A stretch of 64,000 nucleotides of DNA, from NCBI GenBank assembly GCA_947630845.1, contig CANRJB010000009.1, positions 1 to 64,000 on the forward strand. Direction: 5' to 3'. The notes under the pieces are model-generated. The model ran no database searches, was not told the DNA's origin, and was given only the letters and a program-made list of their open reading frames with translations. This document shows, in pieces, positions 568 to 56,940 of this stretch. The translations under genes and the position numbers were made by a program. The first letter of the stretch is position 1, and every line of letters begins with the position of its first letter. This DNA comes from an uncultured Clostridia bacterium (GTDB taxonomy: Bacteria; Bacillota; Clostridia; Oscillospirales; Ruminococcaceae).

Positions 568-593
568 CGGCGGCGCAGGCAGCGTCACGCTGT
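559..593. terminator. Hairpin between convergent genes
   Basis: ACAGCGTGACG pairs with CGTCACGCTGT around a GC-rich loop. It overlaps the stop codons of both the sortase and the convergent ATPase gene, so it could terminate either. The right arm GCAGCGTCACGCTG recurs near 8333. Confidence 0.55.
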
Positions 594-1958
594 AAAATAA
601 AGTGTTCTCCCGTCGATCAGTTCATATTCCCCTGTATTTTCAAACGCAAATCCACCCGTGCAGACAAATCCCACGCCCGAAACGGCAAGACCCCTGATAC
701 TGTCAAGCTGTGCCTTTTCCTGACGGCATTCCGCAAGAGTCATCGGTCTGTCAAAATACTTGCATTCGTAGAGATCATACTGCTCCCCTCGCCGTATCAC
801 GCAGTCAAATTCACCATTGGTTTTCGTGATCGGGTCATCATACCAATAGCTTCCAAAGTCGTCCATATTGGGATATTTGCCAAGCAGGGCGGCTCTGTGA
901 AAATATTGCAGGGCGATACCCTCCAGCCGTCTGCTGACAAATTGCTCCAGTACAGCATCGATATTCCGGCTGTAAAACTGCTCTTCACCAATTCGAGCGA
1001 TCGTTCCCGCCTTGCCGAAAATGAACGTAAAATAAAACCGCATCAGATTATCCACGATTTCATAAAATTGCTTTTTCTTGTCATTACGGCGGTTAATTGG
1101 CTCGGTCTTTTGGATCGTTTCCATATCAAGGAGAATTTTCAATTGCTTGTCAAGCAGACCTGTTTCACTGTTTGCAATTTTATCCCGTATCTCGCTGTAA
1201 CGATTTTTGCCGTTGCCGAGGATTTCCAGTATCCGTGCATCAAAAGTTTTCTGAATTTCCCTGAGCATGACATTTTCGATATGTGACCGCACCAGACCTG
1301 TTTCGGGCAAAAGCAAATGTTCGATATTTTCACGGAGCGTCCGGCTTGTGTCGAGATTTTCCAGAACATAGGGACTTCCGCCGAACACGGCATAGAAAGC
1401 GACTTTGTCACGCACGGAAAGTTCGGGATAGAATTTTGCCGCATCCAAATAATCAAAATCACGGATATGCTGTATCAGCGAGAACCTACCGAACAGCGGA
1501 TCACCCTCTTCAAGCAGCTCTTTCATGACTGTGATATACGAACCACAGAGGATCAGCTTGACATTTTCGGGAAGTTTGTCGATGACCGCCTGCATATAGG
1601 AATCGACCTCGTTTTTCTTTTTGGTTTGCTTGAGGTAGGGATATTCGTCGATGATGAGCAGTATTTTTTTGTCAAGCGTTTTCAGGTAGTCCATCATTTC
1701 AGACAGCGAACCGAAGCGGATATCCGGCAGTCCCAGACCTTCCGAAACGCTCCGGTAGATCAGTTCGAGATTGCCCTCAAAAGTGCTTGTCACGCACATA
1801 TGGTTGATGACGGTGCCGTCAAAACTCTTTGCGGCTTCACGGAGCAGTGTGGTTTTCCCGACTCTGCGCTTGCCGTAGACCAGTACCGCTGTCCTGCGTT
1901 TCCACGAGGATAATTCTGCGGTAAGCTGTCGGAGTTCTTTTTCTCTGCCGATGAACAT
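585..1958 (-). CDS. AAA+ ATPase with C-terminal DUF234 nuclease-like domain
   Basis: This 457-residue protein begins FIGREKEL, as in archaeal-type ATPases of COG1672. It has a Walker A GKRRVGKTT (about residues 29-37), a Walker B LLIIDEYPYL (about 100-109) and a GSY sensor near 140. The C-terminal third contains GEFDCVIRR followed by LYECKYF, the D...ExK pattern of the PD-(D/E)xK-like DUF234 domain. Such proteins are widespread in accessory regions of anaerobes and their function is poorly known; a role in mobile-element or defence biology is only inferred. It is monocistronic, with AAGGTGTG as ribosome binding site and its own promoter. The frame looks intact. Confidence 0.85.
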   Translation of the reverse strand: MFIGREKELRQLTAELSSWKRRTAVLVYGKRRVGKTTLLREAAKSFDGTVINHMCVTSTFEGNLELIYRSVSEGLGLPDIRFGSLSEMMDYLKTLDKKILLIIDEYPYLKQTKKKNEVDSYMQAVIDKLPENVKLILCGSYITVMKELLEEGDPLFGRFSLIQHIRDFDYLDAAKFYPELSVRDKVAFYAVFGGSPYVLENLDTSRTLRENIEHLLLPETGLVRSHIENVMLREIQKTFDARILEILGNGKNRYSEIRDKIANSETGLLDKQLKILLDMETIQKTEPINRRNDKKKQFYEIVDNLMRFYFTFIFGKAGTIARIGEEQFYSRNIDAVLEQFVSRRLEGIALQYFHRAALLGKYPNMDDFGSYWYDDPITKTNGEFDCVIRRGEQYDLYECKYFDRPMTLAECRQEKAQLDSIRGLAVSGVGFVCTGGFAFENTGEYELIDGRTLYFTA

Positions 1959-2109: not shown

Positions 2110-2308
2110 TGTCGTCGGCACGCTGTCGGTGCAGAGCTTGCGCTCCCATCTTCCTCCCACCGGCAAGCTGCCGGCTCCGTTCTGCCTCCCAATGCCGCCT
2201 TTGGCGGCAAAGGTCGGCTTGCTCGACTGTTACGTAAACTTACCTGAGAGCAGTCGCCCTTTGCGCCGTAAGGCGCATTGGGCGACAGATGGGTGCACAG
2301 GCACTGTG
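2110..2308. repeat. Palindrome-rich intergenic segment
   Basis: This gene-free stretch is more GC-rich than its surroundings and carries several hairpins: a near-palindrome CCGGCAAGCTGCCGG, a perfect TGCCGCC-ttt-GGCGGCA at 2193-2209, and a nested CGCCC...GCGCC-gtaa-GGCGC...GGGCG at 2255-2284. Pieces recur near 8300-8345 (CGGCAAGCTGCCGGTGGGA, AGATGGGTGCA), so it is probably a degenerate REP-like or mobile-element-derived sequence. Short ORFs here have no ribosome binding sites and no recognisable product. Confidence 0.5.
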
Positions 2309-2356
2309 TCGCTATGAGAGATGTTGCGGAGAGGCTGCATATAAAGGCATAACAAA
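2309..2356 (+). repeat. 48-bp direct repeat, copy A
   Basis: TCGCTATGAGAGATGTTGCG and the following bases recur in the same orientation at 7454-7501, with about six mismatches in 48. The two copies bracket the AlbA_2 gene and the two decayed genes beside it. Confidence 0.75.
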
Positions 2357-2448
2357 CGCAGAATTAAACGCAGAATTCTGCGTTTAGCGGTATTGACATA
2401 ACGCAGATTATGTGTTATAATAGTATAAACAACCTATATTCTGCGTTT
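2354..2448. promoter_or_regulatory. Operator cluster: repeated AAACGCAGAATT half-sites
   Basis: A perfect 20-bp palindrome AAACGCAGAATTCTGCGTTT lies at 2366-2385. An extra direct half-site AAACGCAGAATT precedes it at 2354-2365. A degenerate inverted pair AACGCAGATTATGTGTT sits inside the promoter spacer at 2400-2416, and an inverted half-site ATTCTGCGTTT at 2438-2448 abuts the ribosome binding site. The sites surround the promoter of the AlbA_2 gene, which is what autorepression would look like. The binding protein is inferred, not shown. Confidence 0.75.
2393..2421 (+). promoter_or_regulatory. Consensus sigma-A promoter of the AlbA_2 gene
   Basis: TTGACA (2393-2398), a 17-base spacer, then TATAAT (2416-2421). 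Both hexamers are perfect, and operator half-sites lie before, within and after the promoter. Confidence 0.85.
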
Positions 2449-2460
2449 GGAGGTACGAAA

Positions 2461-4101
2461 ATGAATATTGGATTTCAGGAAGATCTGTTGAACGAGTTTA
2501 AGAGCGACCGGAAAAAACTCAGTGATTCGGAGATCATAGATGCCATTGTTGCTTTTGCAAATACGGATGGGGGTAACTTTTATCTGGGTATTGAAGATAA
2601 CGGTGAGATCACTGGACTGCATACAGCTCATCAGGATACCACACAGCTTGCGGCTTATATCGCCAACAAAACGGTTCCCCCTGTCGCTGTCAGAATTGAA
2701 AAACAGGAGGATAATTCCTACCTTAAAATCATTGTCACCAAATCCCGCAATGTTGTGGCAGCATCTTCCGGTAAGGTGCTGCGCAGGAGATCAAAAGCGG
2801 ACAGCACGCCTGAAAATGTGCCAATGTACCCGTTTGAGATCAATTCAAGGCTTTCTGATCTGGGTATGCTGGACTTCTCCTCGCTTCCGGTACCGGATTC
2901 GGAATATTCCGATCTGGACAGTATAGAGCGGGAAAGGCTTAGAAATATTATCCGCAAAAACCATGGTGAAGCAAATCTTCTGGAATTGACGGACGAGGAA
3001 TTGGACAAATCTCTGCGGCTGGCTGTATCTGTAAACGGAAAGCTCATGCCGACTTATTGCGGTATGCTTCTCATAGGGCGACAGGATAAGCTCAAAGAGC
3101 ATATGCCGACTGCCGAAAGTGCGTTTCAGGTAATGAGCGGCACAGAGGTAATTATGAATGAAACGTATGTTATGCCAATTCTCTCTGTTTTTGAAAAAAT
3201 CGAATTGAATATGAGTGCAAGAAATTCTGAAATGGAAATTGAGGACGGATTGTTCAGAATATCCGTACCGGATTTTGACAAGCGGGCTTTCAGAGAGGCT
3301 GTTGTAAATGCCTTTTCGCATCGGGATTATACGATGATGGGAATGGTCAGAATACTGCTCGATGATAACGGTCTGACCATAAGCAATCCGGGTGGATTTA
3401 TCGAAGGAATATCCATGGACGATCTGCTCAATGCAGAACCACGAGGACGAAATCCTGCACTTGCGGATGTACTCAAGCGGATAGGTCTTGCAGAAAGAAC
3501 AGGCAGAGGTATTGACAGAATATATGAGGGTTCTTTGGTGTACGGTCGCCCGCTTCCCGATTATTCGGAGTCATCCGGTGTTATGGTAAAGCTGTTCATT
3601 CCGAGAAGTCTGCCGGATGAAACATTTATTAAAATGATTTCTGAAGAACAACGTCGGCTGGGACATTCACTTCCCATCAATACGCTTCTGATTCTGAACG
3701 AGCTGAAGCGTAACAGAAAAGCGACGATAGCAGAATTATCACGCTCCATTCATATAGGTGAAGCGAGAGTGAGAAATTCAGCCGAAAGTCTTGTCGAAAC
3801 AGGAATTCTGGAAGCGACAGGGCAAGGCAGGAGCAGGGCATATATGCTCAGTGCAAAGATATATAAACGCTCCGATAATGTGGAGGGTTACGTCCGCCAA
3901 AAGGGAATAGACAGGGTGCGTTTTCCTGAAATGATCATGCAGTTTGCAGAAGCCAACCATGGTCAGATCAGCCGGGGGGAAGCGGTAGATCTTTTGCGGA
4001 TAAACGAGGCACAAGCCTATTATCTGCTCAAAAAATTGGTAAAGGATAACAGGCTCAGATCCGTGGGAAAAGGCAAGAATGCCCATTACGAAGTGGTGTG
4101 A
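2461..4101 (+). CDS. AlbA_2 (Schlafen-like) DNA-binding / HATPase_c_4 regulator
   Basis: A 546-residue protein of the COG2865 type. The N-terminal part (about 1-125) is an AlbA_2/Schlafen-like domain, with EFKSDRKKLSDSEIIDAIVAFANTDGG typical of the family. A GHKL-type ATPase segment follows at about 265-375, with FREAVVNAFSHRDY as N-box and SNPGGFIEG as G1 box. The C-terminus carries two winged-helix units, about 406-450 and 494-535. ATG 2461 is chosen because GGAGG lies seven bases upstream; the ORF-track start at 2410 lies before the likely transcription start. The palindromic cluster over its promoter suggests autoregulation. Family members are annotated as transcriptional regulators or ATP-binding proteins and their ligands are unknown. 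Confidence 0.85.
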   Translation: MNIGFQEDLLNEFKSDRKKLSDSEIIDAIVAFANTDGGNFYLGIEDNGEITGLHTAHQDTTQLAAYIANKTVPPVAVRIEKQEDNSYLKIIVTKSRNVVAASSGKVLRRRSKADSTPENVPMYPFEINSRLSDLGMLDFSSLPVPDSEYSDLDSIERERLRNIIRKNHGEANLLELTDEELDKSLRLAVSVNGKLMPTYCGMLLIGRQDKLKEHMPTAESAFQVMSGTEVIMNETYVMPILSVFEKIELNMSARNSEMEIEDGLFRISVPDFDKRAFREAVVNAFSHRDYTMMGMVRILLDDNGLTISNPGGFIEGISMDDLLNAEPRGRNPALADVLKRIGLAERTGRGIDRIYEGSLVYGRPLPDYSESSGVMVKLFIPRSLPDETFIKMISEEQRRLGHSLPINTLLILNELKRNRKATIAELSRSIHIGEARVRNSAESLVETGILEATGQGRSRAYMLSAKIYKRSDNVEGYVRQKGIDRVRFPEMIMQFAEANHGQISRGEAVDLLRINEAQAYYLLKKLVKDNRLRSVGKGKNAHYEVV

Positions 4102-4170
4102 ATGATTTGTATTCTTAATGAATGCCGTGCAGGTTTTTCTGCACGGCATACTTTTCTACTGTTTTATGGA

Positions 4171-5443
4171 TCATTGCAAATCAGGAGAATGCCGGTGCAG
4201 ATGCAGTTCGGGGAGTACGAGTGCGTATTCATTGGTGTCGGAAATTTCCGTGCTTCTCCACGCAACAATAAATCGTATCTTTGCGGCTGTGACCTGATAG
4301 CCTTTTTGATTCAGCTTTTCAAGCTTTTCCCGTGCTTTCGCTGAAAGTTTGACAACCGGAGGATTTTTGCTGTTATTTTTAACGCAAAGATAACAGCCAT
4401 TCAGATATAAAGGCTCACCACTCTGGAATTTCAGAATCAAATTCTTTTTATTTTTAATAAAATCAAGAACAACATCCCTGTGTGTGAGCTGCAAGATCAT
4501 TTCATCCGGTTCCGGATACAGTGTCATATCACGGCTGACCGGATAGCCGGAATCCTCAAAAAGGCCATTATTATAGTGTATGTACAATTCCGAACGTGCC
4601 CTTGTCATAGCAACATAGAGCATACGTTTATTTTCAAGAATACTGCTGTCAATGCGGTTCAGCAGCATATAAACGCAGTCAAATTCATGCCCCTTTGCTT
4701 TGTGCATGGTTGAAACAGTGACTTCCTTTTTCGTGGGGTGACACAAGTCCGAAAGATTGGATTCCCGGATAAACGTCTCTAAATCTGAACGGTATTTCTT
4801 TTCATTCACGCTTGCAAATTGGGCAAGCAAATCAAGACACAGGGCAAGACATTCGCTCTTGCTGTAATATTCTTTTAAGCCGATTATTGCAGATTCCCAT
4901 TGTGCATCGCTGATAACAGGCTGCATTTCACCATTTTCTGTGAGTTTCAGAAACATCCGCAATTCAGCAAGATCATACAGCGAAAAGCCGTCATTCGACT
5001 GGATCAGCCTGCACGGGATGCCCCTTTGATGCAACGATCCTATAACGCTCAGGGCTTCTTCATGCAGCGACCTCGTCCATGAACAGCTCCATGGATTTTA
5101 TGGAATCATCCAGCGGATTGCTGAGCATATCGGTCTGCAATTTATCATCTTTCAGCAAACGGTGATACGGTTTTTTCGGGAACAAAAGCGGAGACAGACA
5201 CAGGGTGTCGATGTAATGCACAGTTTGATTTTTGGGCATTGCCGAACCGAGATATTCCAGATCACAGGCAAAAATATTATGTCCGCCTATGTAATCATAC
5301 TTCGCTATAAAATCAGTAAAATCGGCAATTTTTATGCTGTGAAATTCTTTCCCGTCAAGGTCTGCCGCACCAATGTCCAGAATTTTTCCGCTTTCGGGAT
5401 CTATTTCCGAATCAAAAAATACGATCGGTTTCATCAAGATCAA
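4171..5443 (-). pseudogene. Decayed DEDD-exonuclease / RecQ-UvrD helicase fusion
   Basis: The 5' part (5443-5060) encodes a DEDD exonuclease domain: VFFDSEIDP, GHNIFACDLEYL, then KPYHRLLKDDKL and NPLDDS. It stops right after the MELFMDEVAA segment. In another frame, SLHEEALSVIGSLHQRGI begins at once and runs to 4171 as the C-terminus of a UvrD-like helicase, with VSTMHKAKGHEFDCVYML (motif V) and RMLYVAMTRARSELYI (motif VI). From memory, intact relatives are very large proteins annotated as RecQ-family helicases with this N-terminal exonuclease. Here the whole helicase middle appears deleted, with a frame change at the joint. The start overlaps the end of the upstream ATPase remnant, so the two were probably an operon. 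Confidence 0.8.
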
Positions 5444-7249
5444 CTCCCGTAATTTGTGTGGCTTGTTGGATGATGGAATGATTTTCTGCCTTGTTCAATA
5501 TCCACAGAATTGGTGGTCTATTGTTTATGTCGTGACTTTCTGCAAGGATGGAATAGCAGTCCCGGCGGTGTGTCAGGATAAAAAGTTGTGCAATCGTATC
5601 TGAACAGATCAGTTTTTTCAGCATGGCAATTACTATATTTGCAGTTTCTCTGTCAAGCCCTGTAAACGGGTCGTCGATCACAGCAATTCTTTTCGTGTTT
5701 CCTTTTAATTCAGAACCGAGCAGATCATAAAAATATAAAAATGCAAGAAACCGCTGTTCGCCCTCGCTAAGCTGCGAAACAAGCGCACCGTTTTCACGAA
5801 TGACCTCATAAGTATGATCGTATCGTGTGCTTTGTCTAAGTGAGAATCCGGTAAATCCTGCTTTGGCAAGCAGTGTGTTGATATGTGATACAGCATCGGC
5901 AGTGTTTGTGATTTGATTTTCAATTTGAACAAGCTGATCTGAAATGATCCGGCAGCTCTCCTGAAAGTTTTTGAGCTTTCCTGTATAGGTGTGCTTTTTT
6001 GCCGATAACTCCTATTTTTTTATTCTGTACTCTCTGATTTCATTTTGCAGACAATAGGCCATATATGCCATAATATTGTTTTTACAAGTCTCCTGTGCAT
6101 TTTTTATGTTGTCAGCCATTTTGTTATGATTTTCAATTTCAGTATTGATCGCAGCTATTTCCGTGTTGATCTGTTCCATCAGTTCATGCGTATGTTCCAG
6201 TGTAATGACCGAGGACGGGCTTTCGATTTTCTTCCGTATGCTTTCCAGATTCGAGCTGATGATTTGTTTCAGGAGTTTCATCAGACTGATCAATCTGGCA
6301 TGGTCTGTTTTTTCAAAACGGCTGTATTCTTTCAGATTGTTCTGTAGTGGGATGAACATTTCATTTGCCGATCTACGGTACCGTTCCAGAATTTTTTGCA
6401 GATCATCCAGAGAACGCTTGTATGCCTCATCAAAACAGGCGGCAAGCTGTTCCTCAAAATCGTCAGGAAGTGCCTGCTGACAATAGGGGCAGATATTTCC
6501 TGCCTTGTGCAAAAAATTGGCATGACCGTTTTTTACCCAATCCACGGCATGAATTTTTTCATAAATGCCGAAAAGAGCGAATCACCGCTTCCAAGCAGCG
6601 GCGTGCGAAGAAGTTCGTCTTCGTCTATTGTGTCCAGTACCATCGTGTCCGATATCATATAGTAAAACGGAAACGGTTTTATTTCAGAAATAAAGACTGC
6701 ATCATAGAGCTGTGACAGTTTCATTTTGTCTTGCTGCTGCGGTGAAATACAGACACAAGCCTCTGCAAATTTCTGCTTTGTTTTTTTGCCGCTTAGAGCC
6801 TTTTCAAATTCTTTTCGCAATTCTTTTGTTCTTCTCCAACATTTTTCCCGGAATTGTTCATCTGAATTCGCACACGCTTTATTCAGTGAACTGATCATAT
6901 CCGTCAGGATGCGGATATCCGTTTCTTCTTCCTGAAGCTGTTCTTTCAATGCCTTCTGTTCACGAAGCAATTCGGCATTCTGTGTACTGACGGTCACAAT
7001 GCCGGGCATTCCCGCATAATGCTGTATGTTATGCTCTATAAACTGCTTGTCAAAAATGAAAAATTCGCAGTCCTCACCCGCATTATTTTCACCGAAAGTG
7101 AACCTGTCTGTATGATAAAATAGATTTGCGATCGTTGATTTGCCGGTGCCGTTTCTTCCGAAGATAATGTTGATTTTTTGGGGAGAAAATTTGTCGGTGA
7201 GAAAAATTTCGGGCGGCAGTGCAATTTGAAAAATGATATTTGCTGTCAT
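5412..7249 (-). pseudogene. Decayed AAA_13-like ABC-class ATPase
   Basis: Pieces read as one protein: INIIFGRNGTGKSTIANLFY (Walker A) near the N-terminus, a coiled-coil middle with GNICPYCQQALP, the LSEGEQRFLAFLYFYDLL signature, and IAVIDDPFTGLDRETAN (Walker B). Two lesions break it. One is a frame change near 6540 at an A-run (upstream frame ...FMKKFMPWIG, downstream frame YEKIHAVDWVKNG). The other is an in-frame TAG at 6012-6014, after which the same frame stays open to 5412. ATG 7249 follows GGAGG. The domain order resembles AAA_13 proteins, the group containing PrrC/RloC-like ATPases; no anticodon-nuclease domain is seen. Sequencing error cannot explain both lesions comfortably. Confidence 0.8.
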
Positions 7250-7289
7250 ATATCTACCTCCATGTGAAACATAAGGTATTGCTATATAC

Positions 7290-7318
7290 ATTATACCACA
7301 TCGCCATGGATTTGTCAA
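7290..7318 (-). promoter_or_regulatory. Promoter of the decayed ATPase operon
   Basis: On the minus strand TTGACA (7318-7313), a 17-base spacer and TATAAT (7295-7290). The promoter has stayed perfect although both genes behind it are broken, which argues for recent decay. Confidence 0.8.
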
Positions 7319-55536: not shown

Positions 55537-56940
55537 TCAGGATGCCAGAAATGCCCTGAATGCCTGATATGCCGCATAGACATCCGTCTTAGCGACCAGC
55601 TCATAGGGCGCATGCATCGAAAGTACCGGTACACCAATGTCAATGGTGTCAATATCAAGGTTTGCAATATAAGCTGCGACTGTGCCGCCGCCGCCCATGT
55701 CCACTTTGCCAAGCTCTCCGGTCTGCCAGATCACATCCGCATCGTCCAGCATGCGGCGGATCTCTCCGACATATTCCGCAGATGCATCCGATGTGCCTGA
55801 TTTGCCCCTTGCACCTGTGAATTTTGTCACGCAGACACCGTGATTGAAGAAGGCGCAGTTATTCTTTTCCGTCACTTCGGGGAAAGTCGGGTCAAATGCA
55901 GCATTCACATCCGCTGACAGACACTTCGATGCGCTCATCACTGCTCTGCCGTTCAGCCCGAAACAATCTCCCAGATCCATCAGGAAGAATTTCAGATAGG
56001 ATGACTGCAAGCCTGTGTTGCCGTCACTGCCGGTCTCCTCTTTGTCAGTCAGAATGACAACGCTCGTATGCACCGGTGCAGGAGTCGCCAGTGCCGCTGC
56101 AAATGCCGGATATGCACACACTCTGTCATCATGTCCATACGCTCCGATCATGCTCCTGTCAAAGCCCACATCCTGCGCCCTGAATGCCGGAACGGCTTCC
56201 AGCTCAGCGGAGAGAAAGTCCCCCTCAGTGATGCCGTACTTCTCATACAGAAGCTGCATCAGACCAAGCTTGACAAGCTCGCTCCCTTTATCGTCCCGGA
56301 ACGGCATCGAACCGATGACAATGTTCAGCTCCTCGCCCTTGATCCCCTGTGCCAGTTTGCGGTTCATCTGGTCATTGGCAAGATGCGGCAGCAGGTCGGT
56401 GATATAGAACACCGGGTCGCTTTCATCCTCACCAATGCAGACTTCTGCCTTTGTGCCGTCTCTGCGGATGATAACACCGTGCAGTGAGAGCGGTATTGCT
56501 GTCCATTGGTATTTCTTGATACCGCCATAATAATGCGTCTTGAAATAGCCGATTTCCTCCTGCTCATACAGCGGATGCTGTTTCAGGTCAAGACGGGGCG
56601 AATCAATATGTGCCGCACACAGCCGTACTCCCTCTGTCAGGGGTGCTGTTCCGATGGTCGCAAGGATGATCGCCTTCCCACGGTTGTTGAGATACACCTT
56701 GTCGCCTGCATGCAGTTTCATGCCGGGAGTGAACGGCACATAGCCCTGTGCCGTCAGATTTCTTTCAAAAAACGCTGCTGCTTCACGCTCAGTCTTGCAT
56801 GCATTCATGAATGCCTTGTACTCCTCACAGAATGCATCACAAGCTTTGAGCGCATCCTCTGTCATGCGGATACCGGCATGTTTTCTCTGGAGAAAGAGTT
56901 TCTCTTTCCATTCCTGCACCTTGTTGGTTTCTTCTGCCAT
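55537..56940 (-). CDS. apeB: M18-family aminopeptidase
   Basis: A 467-residue cytoplasmic zinc aminopeptidase. AAHIDSPRLDLKQHPLYE carries the first metal His and Asp, ILTDKEETGSDGNTGLQSSYL the catalytic and metal Glu residues, and VLSMHAPYELVAKTDVYAAYQAF the last metal His. It trims N-terminal residues of peptides in a dodecameric complex. ATG 56940 follows AAAGGTGG. Symbol given by family analogy. Confidence 0.9.
   Translation of the reverse strand: MAEETNKVQEWKEKLFLQRKHAGIRMTEDALKACDAFCEEYKAFMNACKTEREAAAFFERNLTAQGYVPFTPGMKLHAGDKVYLNNRGKAIILATIGTAPLTEGVRLCAAHIDSPRLDLKQHPLYEQEEIGYFKTHYYGGIKKYQWTAIPLSLHGVIIRRDGTKAEVCIGEDESDPVFYITDLLPHLANDQMNRKLAQGIKGEELNIVIGSMPFRDDKGSELVKLGLMQLLYEKYGITEGDFLSAELEAVPAFRAQDVGFDRSMIGAYGHDDRVCAYPAFAAALATPAPVHTSVVILTDKEETGSDGNTGLQSSYLKFFLMDLGDCFGLNGRAVMSASKCLSADVNAAFDPTFPEVTEKNNCAFFNHGVCVTKFTGARGKSGTSDASAEYVGEIRRMLDDADVIWQTGELGKVDMGGGGTVAAYIANLDIDTIDIGVPVLSMHAPYELVAKTDVYAAYQAFRAFLAS

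What the first reader, a model, noticed from the sequence alone, without database searches (positions are those of the whole stretch)
2354..2448. Perfect 20-bp palindrome and phased half-sites over the AlbA_2 gene promoter
AAACGCAGAATTCTGCGTTT plus one direct half-site, one degenerate pair and one inverted half-site surround a perfect promoter. Few AlbA_2/HATPase_c_4 proteins have assigned DNA sites. The layout predicts cooperative autorepression and would give a ready sequence motif for the whole family.
Basis: partly seen in the sequence, partly recalled or inferred. Interest (0 to 1): 0.65.

Follow-up and report, generated by a model that had tools for sequence, protein, structure and literature searches.

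The report
Self-operator array of a bacterial Schlafen
The repeats in front of this gene are almost certainly the gene's own control switch: related genes in many gut bacteria carry the same helically spaced layout in different spellings, and the spelling follows two amino acids in the protein's last DNA-binding domain, so the switch looks self-made and its reading rule can be tested.

Summary
A perfect 22-bp palindrome (2365-2386), a direct half-site 12 bp upstream, a degenerate pair over the -10 box and an inverted half-site next to the Shine-Dalgarno surround a 12/12 promoter. The exact half-site occurs three times in the 2.03-Mb genome, all here. In about 80 orthologues from several phyla the same promoter position carries half-site arrays on one DNA face: distances peak at multiples of 10.5 bp, and operators abut the -10. 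The letters differ between orthologues (AACGCACG, AACTCGA, TTGCACA, AACGCAGAA), so there is no universal motif. The change in letters follows the second C-terminal winged helix (residues 488-546), not AlbA_2. Residue 521 is the best predictor of all 546 columns: R521 goes with inner CG, Y521 with inner GAA. E/Q522 goes with AACTC. Twelve of 12 later-fetched orthologues agree (read by eye). I conclude it is a dedicated autoregulatory, most likely autorepressing, operator read by wHTH2. The protein is a stand-alone, patchily distributed Schlafen-HATPase-wHTH protein that keeps the SLFN13 RNase carboxylates; a 48%-identical homologue sits between brxC and pglX. Binding, repression and RNase activity are inferred, not shown.

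The parts
2354..2365 (+). direct half-site 1, AAACGCAGAATT
   Evidence: exact; one of only 3 exact copies in the genome
2365..2386 (.). operator 1: perfect 22-bp palindrome TAAACGCAGAATTCTGCGTTTA, just upstream of the -35
2393..2398 (+). -35 box TTGACA
   Evidence: 12/12 promoter match
2400..2416 (.). operator 2: degenerate pair AACGCAGATTATGTGTT; its right arm embeds the TGn extended -10 and abuts TATAAT, a geometry repeated in orthologues
   Evidence: (I5)
2416..2421 (+). -10 box TATAAT
2438..2448 (-). inverted half-site ATTCTGCGTTT in the predicted 5' leader, next to the Shine-Dalgarno GGAGG (2449-2453)
   Evidence: I8, I12
2461..4101 (+). gene: 546-aa SLFN_AlbA_2 - HATPase_c_4 - tandem wHTH protein (P0001)
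2482..2796 (+). SLFN_AlbA_2 domain (residues 8-112); with E7 just before it, E7/E12/D46 align with the SLFN13 RNase residues E205/E210/D248
3346..3576 (+). HATPase_c_4 domain (residues 296-372)
3619..3849 (+). wHTH1 (residues 387-463)
   Evidence: AlphaFold2 model
3922..4095 (+). wHTH2 (residues 488-545), predicted DNA reader
4021..4026 (+). codons of Y521 and L522, predicted specificity residues in the recognition helix (516-528)
4122..4149 (+). intrinsic terminator-like hairpin after the gene (monocistronic)

Best explanation
The array is a dedicated operator through which the protein controls its own single-gene transcription unit, most likely as a repressor. The protein probably binds as a dimer or higher oligomer. 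Its second C-terminal winged helix (residues 488-546) reads half-sites that all face one side of the DNA: one pair upstream of the -35, one pair across the spacer and touching the -10, and one half-site in the leader. Bound protein would cover the -35/-10 and block RNA polymerase. The N-terminal AlbA_2 domain is more likely the effector (a Schlafen-type RNase) and HATPase_c_4 a sensor or switch, so autorepression would keep a potentially harmful protein scarce until it is needed. Shown by computation: conserved position, helical phasing, uniqueness in the genome, and covariation with residues 521/522. Inferred: binding, repression, oligomeric state, RNase activity, trigger.
For: Promoters of 80 orthologues: best-palindrome score mean 8.1 against 4.4 (shuffles) and 3.6-3.9 (CDS and far-upstream controls); score >=7 in 49/80 against 1/80, 0/80 and 2/71. 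Phasing in 56 non-redundant promoters: same-direction distances peak at 10-12, 21-22, 30-32, 41-42, 52-54 and 62-63 bp, inward pairs at 16 bp (49 seen, 1.1 expected) plus whole turns; best period 10.3-10.5 bp. Arrays abut the -10. Operator similarity, after controlling for the rest of the protein, tracks wHTH2 (partial r 0.21; permutation maximum 0.11), not AlbA_2 (0.05). R521 with inner CG: 50/52 promoters with the trait and 2/24 without; column 521 ranks first of 546; E/Q522 with AACTC: 11/14 and 0/62. Later-fetched orthologues: 12/12 consistent. No other exact half-site in the genome; no shared partner gene.
Against: No binding or expression data. The DNA traits were defined after seeing the promoters. 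Tree-independent contrasts are few: R521/CG 5 for and 0 against (p 0.06), Y521/GAA 3:0, E/Q522/AACTC at most 2:0. For AACTC, columns 505 and 242 associate as well as 522, and three AACTC-type promoters lack E/Q522. wHTH1 shows a weaker signal (partial r 0.13). Position cannot by itself separate repression from activation. The genome is about 92% complete, so a second target could be missing. Single-mismatch half-sites elsewhere number about 19, against 2 for the reversed-pattern control.
Confidence: 0.8

Rival explanations
1. The protein binds its own array but activates, or both activates and represses, its promoter depending on a signal.
For: Operator 1 lies upstream of the -35, where activators can sit; the HATPase_c_4 domain could be a signal switch.
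Against: The promoter already scores 12/12 with an extended -10, so it should not need an activator; in most orthologues a further operator spans the spacer and abuts the -10, which should exclude polymerase.
Confidence: 0.12
2. The sites belong to an unrelated host regulator.
For: Perfect palindromes at promoters are typical of many regulators; binding by P0001 is not shown.
Against: Exact half-sites occur nowhere else in the genome; the letters change from orthologue to orthologue in step with residues 521/522 of this protein, with similar GAATTC-type spellings alongside Y521 in Ruminococcaceae, Elusimicrobium and Actinobacteria.
Confidence: 0.04
3. The array is an iteron or a mobile-element end used in replication or recombination, not transcription control.
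For: Phased direct and inverted repeats resemble iterons; integrase-like genes lie in the flanks of up to 14 of 80 loci.
Against: Arrays are anchored on the -35/-10 of this gene; no replication gene is shared by the loci; flanks of many loci are ordinary chromosomal genes.
Confidence: 0.03
4. The palindrome works as an RNA hairpin (attenuator or leader structure).
For: A perfect inverted repeat can form a hairpin.
Against: The main palindrome lies upstream of the -35 and is not in this transcript; half-sites also occur as direct repeats spaced by whole helical turns, a DNA-face property.
Confidence: 0.01

Closest known systems
[quoted passage not shown] that preprint is not held and was not read)
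   Same: Same domain order; a 48%-identical homologue in this set (L112, Marinobacter) sits between brxC and pglX; Schlafen triad conserved.
   Different: The window's gene and most orthologues are stand-alone with their own promoter and operator array; no BREX gene lies next to it. In the passages of PMC12839542 retrieved no operator or recognition rule is described.
TrlG of Photorhabdus (PMC7554251)
   Same: AlbA_2 + HATPase_c_4 protein; accessory and patchily distributed; mutations in it, or deletion of its operon, relieve growth restriction at 36 C, as expected for a harmful effector.
   Different: TrlG is in a three-gene operon with a separate regulator, TrlR; the retrieved passages describe no self-operator. 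I did not align TrlG with P0001.
Solved structure 3LMM (DIP2311, Corynebacterium diphtheriae)
   Same: Best full-length fold and sequence match.
   Different: About 20% identity; deposited as uncharacterised; I found no DNA site for it.
BrxR/CapW WYL-domain defence repressors (PMC9122601)
   Same: Repression of defence genes, including the repressor's own promoter, through inverted repeats, shown by EMSA and reporters in that paper.
   Different: Unrelated protein; BrxR is a separate regulator, whereas here effector-like and reader domains are in one chain and the array is longer and helically phased.

Membership tests
AlbA_2 / HATPase_c_4 proteins (PF04326 + PF13749) | both Pfam domains above the curated cut-offs | tested here: met
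   59.1 bits (cut-off 25.3) and 57.6 bits (cut-off 26)
Schlafen-type RNase | three carboxylates aligned with SLFN13 E205/E210/D248 | tested here: met
   E7 82/82, E12 82/82, D46 77/82 (rest N)
Schlafen-type RNase | tRNA/rRNA cleavage | not testable with these tools
   needs a biochemical assay; mammalian SLFN13 uses a pseudo-dimer of two lobes, here only one AlbA_2 domain per chain
Autoregulator with a promoter operator | conserved operator over the own -35/-10 in orthologues | tested here: met
Autoregulator with a promoter operator | the operator co-varies with the protein's DNA-reading residues | tested here: met
   12/12 later-fetched loci; the tree-independent pairs alone do not reach p<0.05
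Autoregulator with a promoter operator | protein binds the site and lowers transcription | not testable with these tools
   no bench data
BREX component | encoded inside or next to core BREX genes | tested here: not met
   window neighbours are ATPase_2/DUF234 and broken UvrD_C and AAA_13 genes; only homologue L112 was found in a BREX operon
BrxR/WYL regulators | WYL domain | tested here: not met

The most novel reading that the evidence does not exclude
A one-gene defence device: a single Schlafen protein is both RNase effector and sequence-specific repressor of its own gene, bound along a helically phased array. A signal through the HATPase domain would both release the operator (self-induction) and arm the RNase. 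Its operator specificity drifts quickly but predictably, set by residues 521/522 of wHTH2, so stand-alone copies spread with private, non-cross-talking switches.
Probability: 0.3. Interest if true: 0.8.

Novelty: new variant of a known kind. Interest (0 to 1): 0.63.

Why it matters
Few bacterial AlbA_2/HATPase_c_4 proteins have any assigned DNA site or function, and I found none described in the papers searched. This gives (1) a concrete, unusually well-conserved operator architecture, (2) the part of the protein that should read it, with a two-residue code that can be tested by swaps, and (3) a link between self-controlled stand-alone Schlafens and the BREX-associated ones. It also warns that searching for one shared motif would miss the family, because the spelling changes while the geometry stays.

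Tried and rejected
AlbA_2 as DNA reader: rejected because its partial correlation with operator similarity is 0.05, within the null. A regulon: no other exact half-site or near-perfect palindrome in the genome; the 3-mismatch hit at 56434 was not pursued. A universal motif: rejected, spellings differ. A conserved partner gene: none; PADLOC hits to P0001 itself are to pAgo, CARF and Csa3 models that match through shared domains. Phage origin: only 3 viral contigs encode relatives, at 32-45% identity. Literature searches for an operator or autoregulation of this family found nothing, but the library lacks the 2025 preprint.

Full report
WHAT IS THERE. The palindrome is 22 bp, TAAACGCAGAATTCTGCGTTTA at 2365-2386. 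A direct copy of the 12-base half-site precedes it by 12 bp (2354-2365). AACGCAGATTATGTGTT (2400-2416) lies in the promoter spacer, and its last T is the first base of TATAAT. ATTCTGCGTTT (2438-2448) abuts GGAGG. The promoter is TTGACA-17-TATAAT with TGn. In the genome the exact half-site occurs three times, all here, and no other place matches the 18-bp core with fewer than 3 mismatches. The main palindrome is upstream of the -35, so it is not an RNA element of this transcript.

THE GENE. P0001 (546 aa) has SLFN_AlbA_2 and HATPase_c_4 by Pfam. The AlphaFold2 model (63-row alignment, mean pLDDT 88.7) adds two winged helices, 387-463 and 488-545, which Pfam does not report. The closest full-length fold is 3LMM (DIP2311, uncharacterised), and the N-terminal part matches SLFN13. 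In the profile alignment with SLFN13 E7, E12 and D46 fall on E205, E210 and D248, the three carboxylates whose mutation diminished or abolished RNase activity (PMC5862951); the chain-to-residue offset is my own count. They are E 82/82, E 82/82 and D 77/82 in the orthologue set.

ORTHOLOGUES. The gene is accessory: 17 of 398 genomes of the same family have a full-length match, and none of the 7 listed other genomes of the same genus does. A scan of GTDB genomes returned 80 loci at 48-69% identity from Bacillota, Spirochaetota, Elusimicrobia, Planctomycetes, Verrucomicrobia, Actinomycetota and Proteobacteria, mostly gut or rumen (several are MAG contigs, so individual taxon labels may be wrong). 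Their flanks share no partner gene; the only recurrent class is integrase-like (up to 14 loci). One member, L112 (Marinobacter, 48%), lies between brxC and pglX and has no array in front of it, which fits regulation by the BREX operon. PMC12839542 describes Schlafen-minimal-kinase-wHTH proteins as BREX-linked RNases.

PROMOTERS. Nearly all other orthologues have palindromes or half-site arrays over the promoter. The best-palindrome score averages 8.1 against 4.4 in dinucleotide shuffles and 3.6-3.9 in CDS and far-upstream controls; scores of 7 or more occur in 49/80 promoters against 1/80, 0/80 and 2/71 controls. In 56 promoters from proteins under 85% identical, same-direction half-sites lie 10-12, 21-22, 30-32, 41-42, 52-54 and 62-63 bp apart, and inward-facing pairs span 16 bp or 16 plus whole turns. 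With 35 promoters under 70% identical the best period is 10.3-10.5 bp, resultant length 0.51-0.57, nominal Rayleigh z 64; the coding controls show no such period. The half-site pattern was chosen after seeing the promoters, but it says nothing about spacing, so the phasing is independent evidence. The -10-abutting arm is mostly TGTT/CGTT/AGTT joined to ATAAT. The TGn of the extended -10 explains why that arm is the 'degenerate' TGTGTT rather than TGCGTT (inference).

WHO READS IT. Spellings differ: AACGCACGCGTGCGTT is commonest; others are AACTCGACA.. (Treponema, some Lachnospiraceae), TTGCACATGTGCAA, AACGCATAAATGCGTT, ATCTCTGAATTC.. and the window's AACGCAGAATTC... Similarity of operators between orthologues, with the rest of the protein held constant, correlates with wHTH2 (0.21) and its recognition helix (0.23; permutation maximum 0.09), more weakly with wHTH1 (0.13), and not with AlbA_2 (0.05) or HATPase (-0.10). 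At residue 521 (after Q-A-Y/F) Arg goes with inner CG (50 of 52 promoters that have it, 2 of 24 that lack it); Tyr goes with inner GAA in the window, in L078 (Elusimicrobium) and in L094/L111 (Actinobacteria). At 522 Glu/Gln goes with AACTC (11 of 14, and 0 of 62 others). Column 521 ranks first of 546 for the CG and GAA traits. For AACTC, 505, 242, 523 and 522 are close together, three of them in wHTH2. Tree-independent contrasts all agree in direction (5:0, 3:0, up to 2:0) but are too few to reach p<0.05. Orthologues fetched outside the training set, read by eye, agree 12 of 12: L010, L011, L117-L120, L166, L171 and L177 (R521, CG present), L129 (Q521, no CG), L159 (S521, AACTC arrays without CG) and L130 (Y521, AACTCTGAA). 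L010 and L171 are close relatives of each other, and L010 and L011 had been seen before the rule was framed, so the strictly blind number is 10.

LIMITS OF GENERALITY. Relatives at about 41-50% identity outside this clade (L013, L131, L160-L163, L178, phage L113/L114) show no array in the 190 bases examined; some are clearly downstream genes in operons. More distant relatives at about 28% (L122, L123, L126, L127) have a different repeated element, ATGATGCAAT/TGCATCAT, upstream of the gene, so self-operators may be wider than this clade; not tested.

MECHANISM. Conserved placement over the -35/-10, one-face phasing, absence of other targets and co-change with wHTH2 make an autoregulatory operator by far the best reading, and overlap with the -10 of an already strong promoter makes repression the likely direction. 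What the protein does beyond controlling itself is not shown. The conserved Schlafen carboxylates, the BREX-embedded homologue, the patchy distribution and the TrlG growth phenotype (PMC7554251) point to a defence-type RNase effector kept low by its own operator.

Noticed in passing
window 2181-2224 and 2252-2292: The region upstream of the operator contains small hairpin-forming elements (CCAATGCCGCC..GGCGGCAAAGG) with 11 other partial matches (85-92%) around the genome: a REP/MITE-like interspersed repeat.
   Followed up: partly
window 4171-7318, minus strand: Pieces of a UvrD_C helicase and of an AAA_13 ATPase in several broken frames: the remnant of a helicase/ATPase cassette next to the gene.
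   Followed up: partly
window 585-1958 (-) and promoter 2042-2014 (-): The upstream neighbour, transcribed away, is an ATPase_2/DUF234 protein with its own 12/12 TTGACA-17-TATAAT promoter; ORFs that cluster with it by BLAST lie near two other orthologues, L063 and L103.
   Followed up: no
L112:1-7617: A 48%-identical homologue in Marinobacter sits between brxC and pglX and lacks the promoter array.
   Followed up: partly
L122, L123, L126, L127 upstream regions: AlbA_2/HATPase_c_4-type proteins at about 28% identity carry repeated ATGATGCAAT/TGCATCAT elements upstream: a possible separate self-operator family.
   Followed up: no
L099, L101, L104, L106, L107 flanks: In Treponema the gene lies in a shared element with a ParB-like gene about 110 bp upstream and small HTH and replication-like genes downstream: probably a mobile element.
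   Followed up: no
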